From Opitutus sp. GAS368 (GTDB lineage Bacteria > Verrucomicrobiota > Verrucomicrobiia > Opitutales > Opitutaceae): a DNA stretch of 64,000 nucleotides. Location: the NCBI RefSeq assembly GCF_900104925.1, contig NZ_LT629735.1, positions 900,291 through 964,290 on the forward strand. Direction: 5' to 3'. The first letter of the stretch is position 1; every line of letters starts with the position of its first letter. Both the position numbers and the translations under genes were made by a program. Positions 45,528 to 58,910 of this stretch are shown here, one piece after another. Below the pieces are notes generated by a model, which did not search any database, had not been told where the DNA came from, and worked only from the letters and a program-made list of their open reading frames with translations.

Positions 45528-49322
<3,795 letters not shown>

Positions 49323-49450
49323 GGAATTTCCCGTTTAAGTGTGAGACGAAAAGAAAGAGACAGAACTCAGCGGTTCAGGAGTGAACCACCGGCAATGGTG
49401 CGCACGGACGCAGGGCCTCGATGCGCGGAAAGAACGGAAGAAAAGCCGAA

Positions 49451-49480
49451 AGACAGGCCGCGGTTGGACACGGCCTGTCT
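49451..49480 (-). promoter_or_regulatory. Attenuator-like hairpin between rplL and rpoB
   Basis: AGACAGGCCG and CGGCCTGTCT form a 10-bp perfect stem with loop CGGTTGGACA. On the transcript it is followed by the T-rich stretch TTCGGCTTTTCTT. A partial terminator between rplL and rpoB is typical of other bacteria, where it lowers rpoBC expression relative to L7/L12; that role is inferred here. Confidence 0.65.
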
Positions 49481-49522
49481 CGGCGAATTGAGATGCTTTG
49501 CGGAAGAAAACGCCAAGAGCGG

Positions 49523-49909
49523 TTACTTGAGCTCCACTTTGGCGCCGGCGGCCTCGAGCTTCTTCTTGAGATCCTCGGCTTCGGTCTTGTTGACGCCTTC
49601 CTTGACGTTCTTCGGGGCGGCCTCGACGAGATCCTTGGCCTCCTTGAGGCCGAGACCCGTGATGGCACGGACTTCCTTGATGACGCCAATCTTGTTCGCG
49701 CCGGCCTCCTTGAGGACGACGGTGAACTCGGTCTGCGCCTCGGCAGCCGGAGCGCCGGCGGCGGCAGCGCCACCCGCGGGAGCGGCGGCGACGGCAGCGG
49801 CGGCGGACACGCCCCACTTCGTCTCGAGATCCTTGACGAGGGCGGCGAGTTCGAGAATCGGCTGGGCGGACAGCCATTCAATGACTTGGTCTTTGGTGAT
49901 GTTGCTCAT
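49523..49909 (-). CDS. rplL: 50S ribosomal protein L7/L12
   Basis: The 128-aa stalk protein recruits elongation factors. It has the N-terminal dimerisation helices (about 1-35), an Ala/Gly/Pro-rich hinge (about 36-55) and the C-terminal domain with [37 protein letters not shown] clear Shine-Dalgarno sequence (CAGGAGA) lies before the ATG. Confidence 0.98.
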
Positions 49910-50034
49910 GGTATTTTCTCCTGAAGCGGATAGCGGTCTCGGGTGAAACGCGTTTAAGGGACGTATCCCCTAGCCTCTTCGTTGGATGTATTGCTTCCCG
50001 GCTTGCGCCGGAAAAATTGGGTTGGATGGGTGGG

Positions 50035-54089: not shown

Positions 54090-54165
54090 TGGAGCCCAGA
54101 ACCGGATTCGAACCGGCGACCTCGTCCTTACCAAGAACGTGCTCTACCAACTGAGCTATCTGGGC
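54090..54165 (-). tRNA. tRNA-Thr (GGT anticodon)
   Basis: Acceptor GCCCAGA/TCTGGGC, D arm GCTCAGTTGGTAGAGC, anticodon loop TTGGTAA (anticodon GGU, Thr), T arm GCCGGTTCGAATCCGGT, discriminator T and encoded CCA. It is the first gene of the tuf-secE-nusG-rplKAJL-rpoBC unit, an arrangement similar to thrT-tufB in other bacteria. Confidence 0.96.
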
Positions 54166-54259: not shown

Positions 54260-54991
54260 TTAAGGCCCCACCAAAACCCGATAACGGCCTGGGTTCAGAC
54301 GTTCGCCCAGCCGGAGAGTTTTTACAAGATAGGATCGGAAAAAGGCGTCCACTTCTTCCCACCCCGAGCCGCTCGTCACGACGGGCTCCCCCACTACTCC
54401 GGCATTGCTGATTAAGACTAGAAATTCCAACGGGGCGTAATCCAAGCGGGGCGGAGAAAATCCGCTAAGAGATTGATCTATAATTGGTTTGCTATCATTG
54501 AAGCCCCGGACCTCCAAAAAACCAACCCGGACCGGCAAGCTCGGCCGGGCCACATCGATCTGCCCAAACCCGGCGAAAGGCGCCTCGTTGCCTTGGGCGA
54601 GAACGTCCGACAGCTTTTCCGGCGCTGGCGTGGTTTCAGCCCCGTAGAGCTTCAACTTCTGATCGGCAAAGGTCATGACCGGGTCAAAGCTACCGAAAAC
54701 CTGCCCCGGCTGCCGGCGCAGCCTGGCCGGCAACGGCCGCTGGCCGTAATTCCATTCCGTCGGGAAAAACAGCGGCTTGGGGTCATACAGCTGCGCCCGC
54801 TCCCGGAGAATCACATCATCCGGGTTTGTGCTGGCGCCGGTCAGCCGCACGAATGGCACCGTGATCGCCGGCGTTACGGCCATTGCCGGCGGTTTGGTCC
54901 GCATCCCCATCCACCACATACCGGTGACGGCGATCCCGCAGGCCAGGCTGACCCAGACGCGTCGCTTCACCTCGATTTTGCCGATGCGCAT
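54260..54991 (-). CDS. TonB-like membrane-anchored protein, last gene of the ExbBD operon
   Basis: The product is 243 aa with one N-terminal TM span (about 12-30) after a basic start (MRIGKIEVKRR), so it is anchored in the inner membrane. A linker and a C-terminal domain (about 185-243: PLEFLVLISNAGVVGEPVVTSGSGWEEVDAFF...) resemble the beta-alpha-beta TonB C-terminal fold in outline, without a clear TonB motif. Its place after exbD supports an energy-transducer role; the call is inference. Base composition is more AT-rich than the neighbours. Confidence 0.6.
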   Translation of the reverse strand: MRIGKIEVKRRVWVSLACGIAVTGMWWMGMRTKPPAMAVTPAITVPFVRLTGASTNPDDVILRERAQLYDPKPLFFPTEWNYGQRPLPARLRRQPGQVFGSFDPVMTFADQKLKLYGAETTPAPEKLSDVLAQGNEAPFAGFGQIDVARPSLPVRVGFLEVRGFNDSKPIIDQSLSGFSPPRLDYAPLEFLVLISNAGVVGEPVVTSGSGWEEVDAFFRSYLVKTLRLGERLNPGRYRVLVGP

Positions 54992-55003: not shown

Positions 55004-55459
55004 CTATCGCGGCGCCGCCGCAGGGATGGGGGACTCCGTTGGCACGACAATGTAAGCGAAGCCCACGGCCTTGGCCATGGTGCACAAATCCAGAATCGAC
55101 TGCCACGATACCTGCCGGTCCGCATTCACCTGCATCACGGCACCCGGATGTTTTTTGATGTAGGCTTCCATTTGCTTCCTTAATTCCGTCATGGAATAAA
55201 TACCATCCTCGAACATGACGACGTTGTCCCGCTGGTAGCTCACCACCACGTAGGTGGCCCCGGCGCCCACAGCCGGCTGGACCGGCACTGCTGCGCCATC
55301 CGTCCCCACCCCGATCACTATGCCGGGCGCAAGGACGAAGCGTGAACCCAGCAGGCTGAAAAACAGCACAATCATCCCGACATTCACCCACGCGACGAAA
55401 TTCAGGTCGCGCGGCGGCGGACTCATCCGCGACTCCAGGTCGAGCGGGCGCGTGATCAT
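55004..55459 (-). CDS. exbD: ExbD/TolR-family protein with Asn at the proton-path position
   Basis: ExbD works with ExbB as a stator that uses the proton-motive force. The 151-aa protein has one TM span (about residues 21-42, FVAWVNVGMIVLFFSLLGSR) and a periplasmic domain (about 85-140, VMQVNADRQVSWQSILDLCTMAKAVGFAYIVV). The family's essential Asp in the TM helix (LVDV in typical ExbD) is Asn26 (WVNV). No other acidic residue lies in the helix. It overlaps exbB by 4 nt (ATGA) and lies 12 bp before the TonB-like gene. Confidence 0.88.
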   Translation of the reverse strand: MITRPLDLESRMSPPPRDLNFVAWVNVGMIVLFFSLLGSRFVLAPGIVIGVGTDGAAVPVQPAVGAGATYVVVSYQRDNVVMFEDGIYSMTELRKQMEAYIKKHPGAVMQVNADRQVSWQSILDLCTMAKAVGFAYIVVPTESPIPAAAPR

Positions 55460-56100
55460 TTTTTCTCCCCGGGATCGCCGCGGTAGTCGCGCAGCAAAAA
55501 ACGCATGAGTTCGCTGCCCGCCCATTCCATGTCCTGCACGAGCGCCCGCACGCGGCCCGTGAGAAAATGCCGCGCCAGGAGCGCCGGGATCGCCACGACC
55601 ACGCCGGCCGCCGCCGTGAGCAGCGCCTCCCACATGCCACCGGCCAGCACGACGGGCGTCGCGTAGTTGCCGCCCTGGTTGAAGAGCCAGAAGGTCTTGA
55701 TCATCCCGAGGAGCGTGCCCAGCAGCCCGAACAACGGCGCGATCTGCGCGATGGCCGCGAGCGCGCTGATGCGCCGCTCCAGCACCGGGATCTCGACGAT
55801 CGCCGCCTCCTGGATGGCGAAGCGCATCGCCTGCTCGTCGTCCGTGGCGTGCCGCAGCCCGGCCTTCACGACCTTGGCCACCGGCCCGGGCGTCTCTTCG
55901 CACAGGGTCAGGGCCTCCATCAGCCGCTGTTTCTGCAGCAGATTCTTGATGCCGCCGAGGAATTCCGTCGAACGGATCTGGCCGCGGTGCAGGAACAGCG
56001 CGCGCTCGATGAAAAGGACGATCGCCGCCAGCCCGAGCAGGACAAGCAGCCACATCACGGGGCCGCCCTTGGCGAAGACACTGTAGCTGAAAGCCGTCAT
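55456..56100 (-). CDS. exbB: ExbB/TolQ/MotA-family proton channel protein
   Basis: The 214-aa protein has three TM spans. The first is near 15-35. The second and third carry the family motifs APLFGLLGTLLGMIKTF (Thr) and WEALLTAAAGVVVAIPALLA (Glu and Thr). The key channel residues seen in ExbB are present, in contrast to its ExbD partner. It lies 52 bp after the TPR gene on the same strand and is coupled to exbD. Confidence 0.93.
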   Translation of the reverse strand: MTAFSYSVFAKGGPVMWLLVLLGLAAIVLFIERALFLHRGQIRSTEFLGGIKNLLQKQRLMEALTLCEETPGPVAKVVKAGLRHATDDEQAMRFAIQEAAIVEIPVLERRISALAAIAQIAPLFGLLGTLLGMIKTFWLFNQGGNYATPVVLAGGMWEALLTAAAGVVVAIPALLARHFLTGRVRALVQDMEWAGSELMRFLLRDYRGDPGEKK

Positions 56101-56152: not shown

Positions 56153-58756
56153 TCACGGCTTGGTCCCTCCCGCCGCGCCGAACCGGGCCAGCTTGGCCTG
56201 CGCCTGCGCGGCGCCGGCGAGCTTATGGTCCACGATCAACTGGTAGGCGCGCTGCGCCTCGTCGAGCCGGCCGGCATCCTCGTGGATCTGGCCCAGCTCG
56301 AGCAGCGCGCGCGAAACCCAGTAGCGCCCCTTGGCGCCAAGCTTCGCCGCCTGCGCGGGGTCGAGCAGGAACGCGTCCACCACCGACCAGAACACCGTCT
56401 GCGCCTTGGCCGGCTGCGTGCGCTTGGCCAGCGCATAGCCCCACTTGTAGCCCGCCTCGGCGCGCAGGTCGACCGGCGCCGACGGCAGGTCGCGCAACCG
56501 CTCGAAAATCGCCGCGGCGCTCTCGTAGTTCACCACGCTGTTGGCCCCCTGCGCGAAGAGGCTGTCGGCCAGCGCGAGCTGCGCGAGCAGCACGTCGGGA
56601 TGGAGGCTGTAGTTGTTGATGAGATCCTCATACACCTGCCGGGCCTGCGGGAAAAAGTTCAGCTTCCGCAGCAGGTCGCCCTGCTTCAGCCGCGCATAGA
56701 ACACCAGTTCGTCCCGCGGGTAGGTCTTGATCAGCGTCTCCAGCAGCTTGTTGGCCTCCTCCAGCTGCCGGTCGAGGCCCTGCCGCTCGAGGTTGAGCGC
56801 CGCCTCATACAGCGCCAGCGGGGCGTATTCGCTCTGCCGGTATTCCGGCGTGTCCACGAAGCTGATGAGCACGCGCTGCGCCCCGGCCATGTCGCCGCGC
56901 TGCGTCAGGTGGCCGGCCTGCACCAGGTAGGAATACTGGGCCGCGGCGGTGGTGCGGTAATCGGCGCGCAGCTGGTCGAGCAGCGCCACGCCCTCGGTGT
57001 CGCGGCCGAGCGCGAGCAGCGCCTGGGCCTTCAGCAGCTGGGCCGTGCTGGTGACATTGACGCGGAGCGCCTCCTCCAGCGGCCCGCCCTTTTGCAGCAG
57101 CGCCAGCAATTCGTCCGCCTGCCGCAGCGCCGTGTCGGGCTGGCTGTTGTCGAACGACAGCTTGGCGCGCAGCCACATGAGCCGGATGCGCAATTCCTCC
57201 GGCACGCCCTGGGCGCCGCCGGCCAGCAACCGCTCCACGCGGGCCTGGGCCGCCGCCGCCTGGCCGCGCGCCTGCATCTCCTTGATCAGGTTCCATTCCG
57301 CCTGCCAGCGGCTCAACGCATCGAAGCCGGCCAGCGTCGAGGACTCGTCCAGCTGCTTCGCCGCCGCGTCGAGCTGGTCGGCCCGGATGTCGGAGAGCAC
57401 CCGTTGAAAAATCAGGGTGCCGGCTTTTTCGACCGCCGGCAGCTCGTGCAGCGCCGCCGCGTAGGCGTCGGCGGCGTTCTTGTAGTCCTCCGAGCGGAAA
57501 AACGCCTCGGCCAGCAGCACGCCGAGCTCGGCGTGCTCCCGGCCCTCGGGGATGACCGCGCGCAGTTGCACGGCGACGTCCGCCGCCGAGCGGTAGCGCT
57601 TCAAGTCCCACGCCACCGCCAGCCGCACGCCCAGCGCCTCGGGTTTGAGCGGTGAGCCCGGATAACGTTCCAGCAAGGCCCGCGCGTCCTCCTCGGCGGG
57701 CGCGTAATCCTGGTCCACCAGTGCCGCCCGCCCCCGCGCCAGGATCAGGTCCTCGATGATCGGGTGTTGGGTGGGTGCGCTGATGAGGTCGCTCAGGTCG
57801 CGCCGCAGTTGGAGGCGCTCCGCCGGAGTCTTCGCCCCGCGCGCCAACAGCTGCAAAGCCAGTCGTTGGGTGTCCGGCCGCTGGCCGTCGCGCAGCAGTT
57901 GCCGGAAGGCCTGGTGGCCCGCCACGCTGCCCTCGCCGGCGATGAGCCCCAGCATCAGGCCGAGCTGGTCGGCCGCGTCACGCTCCGTCGGCGGCAGCAC
58001 GGACAGCTGGCGCTGTAGCACCGCCTGCGCCTCCGCCGCCCGGCCAAGGCCGGCCAGCGCCGCCGCGTAGGTGCGCACATAGGTGTAGCCGGTGCGCTGG
58101 CCCTGGAAACGCTCCATGTTGCCCCGCAGGGTCGCGAGCTGGGCTTCGTTGGCCCGCCCCAGGCGCAGCCGCGACTGCTCCTGGCCGAGCACAAAGCGCG
58201 CGCGCTGCAGATCCGACACCGCGGCCCGCCCCGCCTGGTCATAAAGATTGTTCGCCGGCACGATCTCGCCCTCGGCATCGGCCACGCTGGCCTGCAGGAA
58301 AAGCCACCAGCCGCGGTCGGCCGCCGGCAGGTCATCGGCCTTGCCCGCCGCCAGCGCCGCCTTGGCCGCGGCGGTGCGCCGGCCCGTCACGGCAATGAGG
58401 CCGGCGCGCAGCTGATAGGCGGTGTTGCGCGGGCCGTCGTAACCCTGCAGCGTGCTTTCCGCCGGGCCCAGCTCGCCGGCATCAAGCAGGGCCGTCACCA
58501 GCGCCAGGGTCACCCGCTGCTTCGTCTCCGCCGGCAACGCCGGATCGCGCAGCAGTTCCCGGAAACCGGCGGCCGCCGTCGCGGGAAACCCGGCCTGCAG
58601 CGCGGCGTTTGCCCGCCCCTCCGCCACGATCCAGCCGCCCGGCACCAGCTGGGCCGTGGCCTGGTCGGGGACCAGCGGGCTCGGTCCGGCCACCTGGGCC
58701 GTGAGCCGCGCGGCGGCCAGCGACAGCGAAAGCAAGAGGAGGCGCGCCAACTTCAT
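56153..58756 (-). CDS. Large secreted TPR protein, first gene of the ExbBD operon
   Basis: The product is 867 aa. A signal peptide occupies residues 1-20 (MKLARLLLLSLSLAAARLTA). The rest is almost all alpha-helical with degenerate tetratricopeptide repeats, Ala/Leu/Gln-rich (for example DLPAADRGWWLFLQASVADAEGE, ALEEALRV...LLKAQALLALG). Near the C terminus, repeats such as AQAAKLGAKGRYWVSRALLELGQIHEDAGRLDEAQRAY fit YfgC/BamD-like TPR units. It is probably periplasmic. Linkage to ExbB/ExbD/TonB-like genes suggests it is part of, or powered by, that stator complex. Confidence 0.85.
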   Translation of the reverse strand: MKLARLLLLSLSLAAARLTAQVAGPSPLVPDQATAQLVPGGWIVAEGRANAALQAGFPATAAAGFRELLRDPALPAETKQRVTLALVTALLDAGELGPAESTLQGYDGPRNTAYQLRAGLIAVTGRRTAAAKAALAAGKADDLPAADRGWWLFLQASVADAEGEIVPANNLYDQAGRAAVSDLQRARFVLGQEQSRLRLGRANEAQLATLRGNMERFQGQRTGYTYVRTYAAALAGLGRAAEAQAVLQRQLSVLPPTERDAADQLGLMLGLIAGEGSVAGHQAFRQLLRDGQRPDTQRLALQLLARGAKTPAERLQLRRDLSDLISAPTQHPIIEDLILARGRAALVDQDYAPAEEDARALLERYPGSPLKPEALGVRLAVAWDLKRYRSAADVAVQLRAVIPEGREHAELGVLLAEAFFRSEDYKNAADAYAAALHELPAVEKAGTLIFQRVLSDIRADQLDAAAKQLDESSTLAGFDALSRWQAEWNLIKEMQARGQAAAAQARVERLLAGGAQGVPEELRIRLMWLRAKLSFDNSQPDTALRQADELLALLQKGGPLEEALRVNVTSTAQLLKAQALLALGRDTEGVALLDQLRADYRTTAAAQYSYLVQAGHLTQRGDMAGAQRVLISFVDTPEYRQSEYAPLALYEAALNLERQGLDRQLEEANKLLETLIKTYPRDELVFYARLKQGDLLRKLNFFPQARQVYEDLINNYSLHPDVLLAQLALADSLFAQGANSVVNYESAAAIFERLRDLPSAPVDLRAEAGYKWGYALAKRTQPAKAQTVFWSVVDAFLLDPAQAAKLGAKGRYWVSRALLELGQIHEDAGRLDEAQRAYQLIVDHKLAGAAQAQAKLARFGAAGGTKP

Positions 58757-58910
58757 ATGAATGGCTTGAGCGTGCAGCCCCGGCCCCGGGTGGCAAGCCT
58801 CGGGCGGCGGCGGGCCGGTTGAAATTATCCCCCGCCGTGTAACGGAAAACTTCTCGCGCCACCCCGGGGCATCGGGCAACCTACGCCATCAGTCCCAACC
58901 CAATCACCCT

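What the first reader, a model, noticed from the sequence alone, without database searches (positions are those of the whole stretch)
55382..55384. ExbD with Asn at the essential proton-coupling Asp
The TM helix reads FVAWVNVGMIVLFF. The position of the conserved Asp (LVDV in ExbD/TolR) is Asn26, codon AAT. In E. coli ExbD an Asp-to-Asn change at this site abolishes function. ExbB here keeps its channel Thr/Glu residues, and the operon (TPR protein, ExbB, ExbD, TonB-like) looks intact. The complex may be a structural scaffold, use another residue or ion, or be a regulatory variant.
Basis: partly seen in the sequence, partly recalled or inferred. Interest (0 to 1): 0.65.

Follow-up and report, generated by a model that had tools for sequence, protein, structure and literature searches.

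The report
Proton motor lacking its proton-binding residue
A membrane protein that normally helps turn a proton current into mechanical force has permanently swapped its essential acidic residue for a neutral one across a whole bacterial family, and relatives have done the same several more times, which suggests that an ancient motor was repeatedly converted into a conserved non-motor part of the cell envelope.

Summary
In detail: the ExbD-type protein at 55004-55459 (-) has Asn26 (codon AAT, 55382-55384) at the site of the essential Asp. It is neither an error nor a recent mutation. In the family (by named relatives, Opitutaceae) Asn is fixed in 137 of 146 distinct sequences with a readable site, with 2 Ser. 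Seven early-branching members and most families of the order keep Asp, so Asn is derived, from one change in this family. The site is the 5th most conserved of 139 ExbD columns; dN/dS is 0.01-0.2. Other lineages of the order and class independently carry N, S, A, C, T, L or G.

ExbB 181 keeps a hydroxyl in 51/51 Asp-type partners but 99/172 non-Asp ones. The TonB-like partner's transmembrane His is present in 37/47 Asp-type operons and 0/144 others. About a dozen 0.7-1.1 Mb genomes keep this non-Asp ExbD as their only detectable ExbD.

Best reading: a 5:2 complex uncoupled from the proton motive force, locked in a protonated-like state and retained as an envelope scaffold. Function is inferred, not shown.

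The parts
55004..55459 (-). ExbD/TolR-family protein (151 aa), Asn instead of the proton-binding Asp
   Evidence: Pfam PF02472 27.3 bits over cut-off; PDB profile match to ExbD E 2.5e-9; model with TM helix 20-36 and a periplasmic domain
55382..55384 (-). Asn26 codon AAT, the position of Asp25 of E. coli ExbD
   Evidence: sequence; alignments
55456..56100 (-). ExbB/TolQ-family protein (214 aa), overlaps exbD by 4 nt
   Evidence: Pfam MotA_ExbB 1.2e-27; NCBIfam best match TolQ 1e-20, below cut-off
55612..55614 (-). ExbB Ala163 at the position of the essential Thr181
   Evidence: alignment to E. coli ExbB, ungapped from E176 to G184
55714..55716 (-). ExbB Thr129 at the position of Thr148 (kept)
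55627..55629 (-). ExbB Glu158 at the position of Glu176 (kept here, Gln in most relatives)
54260..54991 (-). TonB/TolA-like protein: N-terminal TM helix without the His, disordered linker, C-terminal domain
   Evidence: AlphaFold2 model; five best structural matches are TonB/TolA C-terminal domains, Z 4.5-5.2; His column 0/144 in non-Asp operons; no Pfam match
56153..58879 (-). TPR protein (start probably at the internal ATG near 58756, signal peptide MKLARLLLLSLSLAAARLTAQ); YbgF/CpoB-like and BamD-like repeats
   Evidence: Pfam TPR_6 6.8e-10; NCBIfam tol_pal_ybgF 1.7e-16, below cut-off

Best explanation
This is a Tol/Ton-like 5:2 complex (ExbB pentamer, ExbD dimer, plus a TPR protein and a TonB/TolA-like tether) that was a proton-driven motor in the ancestor and lost its coupling to the proton motive force at the base of the core Opitutaceae, and independently in other lineages of the order and class. 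Asn26 is a fixed mimic of protonated Asp, so the axle can no longer bind and release protons. ExbB T181 and the tether's TM His, both needed for coupling, were then free to drift. The complex is kept under purifying selection for something other than energy coupling, most likely a passive cross-envelope scaffold joining the inner membrane to the peptidoglycan or outer membrane. Shown: fixation and polarity of the substitution, its repetition, the covariation, purifying selection, and retention as the only detectable ExbD in reduced genomes. Inferred: absence of proton flow, the locked state, and the scaffold role.
For: Asn fixed in the family, with Asp in seven basal members and most other families; one D-to-N change on the family tree. 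Site ranks 5th of 139 in conservation; dN/dS 0.01-0.2. ExbB 181 keeps Thr/Ser in 51/51 D-types and 99/172 non-D types, Fisher 8e-11 without phylogeny; no hydroxyl change at 148/181 on 31.4 units of Asp tree length vs 13 on 36.0 units of non-Asp length, about 3e-4; 14 changes of the 181 hydroxyl state on the family tree, while all 7 Asp-type members keep Thr. TonB-like His in 37/47 D and 0/144 non-D. In f7 and f27 D, T148 and T181 are nearly all gone (N/S/A/C with V or I). In 12 genomes of 0.7-1.1 Mb the only detectable ExbD is the non-Asp one; of 16 genomes scanned only the window's and G161 have a TonB-dependent receptor match, and none of 16 has TolB. Literature: Asp 'absolutely required' (PMC12905483), ExbD D25N inactive (PMC11658791), D/T148/T181 the shared proton path (PMC12965293), MotB D22N a protonation mimic (PMC9389320).
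Against: No experiment. The window's own ExbB has Glu at 176 and T148 intact, so residual proton passage is possible. T181 is still Thr or Ser in more than half of non-Asp ExbBs, so decay is incomplete. The independent-pairs test has too few pairs to be significant, and the deep root of the order tree is uncertain. The scaffold function has no direct support. 'Only ExbD' rests on Pfam detection in incomplete MAGs (83-95% complete).
Confidence: 0.62

Rival explanations
1. Still a proton motor, but the protonatable residue has moved to the ring, as in GldLM, where a Glu of the A subunit (GldL E49) couples to the proton gradient. Here ExbB E158 (E176) would take the role.
For: Window ExbB has Glu there while the closest Asp-type relatives have Gln; the window's 19-member subclade has E in 15; GldL E49 is essential for that motor (PMC8986121).
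Against: In the same subclade 2 are Val and 2 Gln; across non-Asp ExbBs it is Q 100, E 34, S 11, A 8, R 5, M 3, H 2, V 2 and others. No other acidic pore residue is newly conserved. T181 is Ala in all 19 of that subclade.
Confidence: 0.15
2. A regulatory subunit: Asn-type ExbD joins pentamers or dimers with Asp-type ExbBD of the same cell and tunes them.
For: The window genome has four other ExbDs, all with Asp, and 43 TonB-dependent receptor matches.
Against: It has its own adjacent ExbB, TPR and TonB-like genes; in about a dozen reduced genomes there is no other detectable ExbD to regulate.
Confidence: 0.1
3. Coupled to another ion or energy source, with the Asn carbonyl or hydroxyl groups coordinating Na+.
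For: Asn is strongly conserved within the family, so its side chain matters.
Against: PomB and other Na+ motors keep the Asp (established knowledge). Other lineages have Leu, Ala or Gly at the site, several with Ala, Val or Ile in ExbB, which cannot coordinate an ion.
Confidence: 0.05
4. Recent mutation, pseudogene or sequencing error.
For: None beyond the unusual residue.
Against: Fixed in 137 of 146 readable distinct family sequences, AAC and AAT codons both used, low dN/dS.
Confidence: 0.01

Closest known systems
ExbB-ExbD-TonB (Ton motor)
   Same: ExbB and ExbD are homologs by Pfam and PDB profile; the downstream protein has the TonB topology and a TonB/TolA-like C-terminal domain
   Different: Asp25 is Asn, T181 is Ala, the TonB-like TM lacks the His of the SHLS motif; TPR gene in the operon; kept in genomes without TonB-dependent receptors
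TolQ-TolR-TolA with YbgF/CpoB (Tol-Pal)
   Same: ExbB scores best with TolQ; the TPR protein scores with YbgF; motor, tether and TPR partner in one operon
   Different: No TolB_N match in any of 16 genomes tested; no Asp23 equivalent; all scores far below equivalog cut-offs
PVC TPR-TolQ-TolR-TolR-vWA operons (PMC12204202)
   Same: TPR gene followed by tolQ- and tolR-like genes and a force-transducer-like gene, in Verrucomicrobia among others
   Different: Single ExbD, TonB/TolA-like rather than vWA C-terminal domain, coupling residues lost; the passages of that paper that I read do not mention Asp-less tolR genes
MotB D22N / ExbD D25N laboratory mutants
   Same: Same chemical change; MotB D22N is used as a protonation mimic and ExbD D25N is inactive
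   Different: Here the change is natural, ancient, fixed and under purifying selection
GldLM (type 9 secretion motor)
   Same: A 5:2 motor in which the essential acid sits on the ring subunit GldL
   Different: There the ring Glu is strictly conserved; here the candidate ring Glu is not

Membership tests
ExbD/TolR family (PF02472) | profile match over the curated cut-off | tested here: met
   27.3 bits vs 25.4; 26.7 bits in the genome search
ExbD/TolR family (PF02472) | one TM helix followed by a periplasmic ExbD domain | tested here: met
   model helix 20-36 and beta-alpha domain 70-138; PDB profile match to periplasmic ExbD structures
ExbD/TolR family (PF02472) | proton-binding Asp in the TM helix | tested here: not met
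   Asn26
PMF-driven 5:2 motor | Asp plus Thr148 and Thr181 of the ring | tested here: not met
   Asn26 and Ala163; only the Thr148 equivalent kept
PMF-driven 5:2 motor | ion flux driving rotation or force | not testable with these tools
   needs flux or in vivo assays
PMF-driven 5:2 motor | five ring subunits around two axle subunits | not testable with these tools
   no complex prediction offered; inferred from homology
TonB/TolA force transducer | TM helix with SHLS-motif His | tested here: not met
   His column 0/144 in non-Asp operons, 37/47 in Asp operons
TonB/TolA force transducer | TonB/TolA C-terminal fold | tested here: inconclusive
   top five VIA-align rows are TonB/TolA CTDs at Z 4.5-5.2; Foldseek E 0.8 at best; no Pfam TonB_C match
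Tol-Pal system | TolB present in the genome | tested here: not met
   no PF04052 match in 16 genomes including the window's; control genomes positive

The most novel reading that the evidence does not exclude
A whole bacterial class carries a pseudo-motor: an ExbBD complex that repeatedly lost the residues for proton coupling but is maintained as an envelope component, to the point of being the only detectable ExbBD kept by some reduced genomes. This would be the pseudoenzyme equivalent of a rotary motor.
Probability: 0.55. Interest if true: 0.78.

Novelty: new variant of a known kind. Interest (0 to 1): 0.66.

Why it matters
The Asp is described as absolutely required in ExbD, TolR and MotB. 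A natural, old and conserved set of homologs without it separates the structural role of these 5:2 complexes from their motor role, and offers natural controls for mechanism: which parts of the Ton/Tol complex are under selection once proton coupling is gone. It also warns that an ExbD annotation does not mean an energised transport system, and points to an envelope function in this order that is kept when TonB receptors, the tether and the TPR protein are gone.

Tried and rejected
Recent mutation, error and pseudogene were rejected. ExbB E176 as a universal replacement acid was rejected for the clade as a whole, but not for the window's subclade. A newly gained conserved ExbB His near the cytoplasmic end of TM3 (92% in N-types) was considered as an alternative titratable site, but the window has Leu there. 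treekit independent pairs gave too few pairs to test covariation, so a branch-length comparison was used instead. Pfam and PDB sequence searches did not recognise the TonB-like protein; only the structural comparison did, weakly. NCBIfam gave no equivalog above its cut-off for any of the four proteins. Literature searches found no report of natural Asp-less ExbD or TolR among the papers held; subscription papers are not covered.

Full report
CHECK OF THE OBSERVATION. The minus-strand ORF 55004-55459 encodes a 151-residue ExbD/TolR-family protein. It passes the Pfam gathering score (27.3 vs 25.4 bits), and its family profile matches solved ExbD structures (7ajq, E 2.5e-9). Codon 26, at 55382-55384, is AAT, Asn. 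It aligns with the Asp of orthologs and of the four other ExbDs of the same 4.15 Mb genome, all of which have Asp. An AlphaFold2 model places it inside the only TM helix, residues 20-36. The operon, read on the minus strand, is TPR protein, ExbB, ExbD (4-nt overlap with exbB), TonB-like protein. Counted from the Glu at 176, the window ExbB reads E-A-L-L-T-A where E. coli reads E-A-L-L-A-T, so position 181 is Ala163.

HOW OLD AND HOW GENERAL. A search of 150 genomes of the same family found the protein in 143. Named relatives place the window in Opitutaceae, nearest to Lacunisphaera-like MAGs. After removal of identical sequences the family set has 137 Asn, 2 Ser and 7 Asp. The Asp sequences form the sister group of the Asn clade. 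The family tree needs one D-to-N change, and Asp is the state in most other families of the order, so Asn is derived in this lineage. Within Asn-types the site is the 5th most conserved of 139 columns, both Asn codons are used, and dN/dS of close pairs is 0.01-0.2. The Asn is therefore selected, not merely tolerated.

REPEATED LOSS. In the order, other families carry Asn (f7, f13, f19, f23, f25, f26), Ser, Ala or Cys (f27), Ala (f15), Cys (one f7 member), or Leu, Ala, Thr and Ser (f19) at the site. The tree of 117 sequences needs at least four Asp/non-Asp changes, and 14 changes of residue at the site. Its deep root is uncertain. Outside the order, in the same class, Asn, Thr or Gly occur in f29, f31, f32, f33, f35, f45, f56, f58 and f65, sometimes in the same family as Asp.

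COVARIATION WITH THE REST OF THE MACHINE. Published work names ExbD Asp25 with ExbB Thr148 and Thr181 as the shared proton path (PMC12965293) and calls the Asp absolutely required (PMC12905483). In all 51 Asp-type partners ExbB 181 is Thr or Ser; in 172 non-Asp partners it is Thr or Ser in 99 and Ala, Ile, Val, Met, Leu or Phe in 73 (Fisher 8e-11, which ignores phylogeny). With phylogeny taken into account through branch lengths, no hydroxyl change at 148 or 181 falls on 31.4 units of Asp-Asp tree length and 13 counts fall on 36.0 units of non-Asp length, a chance of about 3e-4 under equal rates and independence of the two sites. For 181 alone, 8 changes give 0.007. In f7 and f27 Thr148 is mostly Val or Ile and 181 mostly Ile. 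The TM helix of the TonB-like partner has a His, part of the SHLS motif that contacts the motor (PMC12905483; PMC12204202), in 37 of 47 Asp-type operons and in none of 144 non-Asp ones. Three proteins of the complex thus show loss of coupling features together. Whether His loss came with or after Asp loss cannot be told from these data, and some Asp-type families also lack the His.

RETENTION IN REDUCED GENOMES. In twelve genomes of 0.7-1.1 Mb from f7, f25, f26 and f27 the only detectable ExbD is the non-Asp one, with a single ExbB in nearly all. Those scanned have no TonB-dependent receptor match and no TolB. In f7, f25 and f27 the TonB-like and TPR genes are no longer adjacent. The ExbB-ExbD pair is therefore the part kept longest. 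Two cautions apply: the genomes are 83-95% complete MAGs, and detection depends on the Pfam model.

WHAT THE TONB-LIKE GENE IS. It has no Pfam match. Its model has a TM helix, a low-confidence linker and a confident C-terminal domain. The best five structural alignments are all TonB or TolA C-terminal domains, Z 4.5-5.2, against a Foldseek best E of 0.8. I treat TonB/TolA-likeness as probable, not proven.

MECHANISM. MotB D22N is used as a mimic of the protonated state (PMC9389320) and ExbD D25N is inactive in E. coli (PMC11658791). By inference Asn26 holds the axle in the neutral state, so no protonation cycle can drive rotation. Conservation of ExbB fold residues, of the ExbD periplasmic domain and of Asn itself means that the assembled complex is still needed. 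A passive envelope scaffold is the simplest remaining role. The main rival is a relocated acid on the ring, as in GldLM (PMC8986121). In the window's own subclade of 19, ExbB 176 is Glu in 15, Val in 2 and Gln in 2, and it is Gln in most non-Asp ExbBs, so it is not a general replacement.

NOVELTY. The protein belongs to the ExbD family by sequence and fold, but fails the defining Asp test. I file it as a new variant of a known kind: a natural, ancient, repeatedly evolved Asp-less 5:2 complex. Searches of the held papers found no earlier report.

Noticed in passing
ExbB 55456-56100, TM3 'AIPALLARHFL': Asn-type ExbBs of the family have gained a His (AIPAHLA, 92%) near the cytoplasmic end of TM3 that Asp-types mostly lack; the window's own copy has Leu there.
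   Followed up: partly
54260-54991 and orthologs in other families: The TonB-like proteins share a strongly conserved periplasmic motif (D-S/P-x-P-L-F-L-P-T-x-W-N) that Pfam does not recognise, in both Asp and non-Asp operons.
   Followed up: no
L298, L244 (f19): A family with Leu, Ala, Thr, Asn or Ser at the site; members with an ExbB found keep a 930-1040 aa upstream ORF at the TPR position but lack the TonB-like gene; in L298 an undecaprenyl diphosphate synthase-like ORF and a membrane protein ORF follow directly.
   Followed up: no
45735-49946 (+): A 1403-codon open frame runs antisense to rpoB and rplL; probably a by-product of high G+C codon use.
   Followed up: no
54090-54165 (-): tRNA-Thr(GGT) separates the motor operon from tuf and the ribosomal protein and rpoB cluster.
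   Followed up: yes
G000:C1:2976486-2977334 (L001, L004): A second ExbB with two adjacent ExbDs (both Asp) in the same genome, like the PVC tolQ-tolR-tolR operons of PMC12204202.
   Followed up: partly
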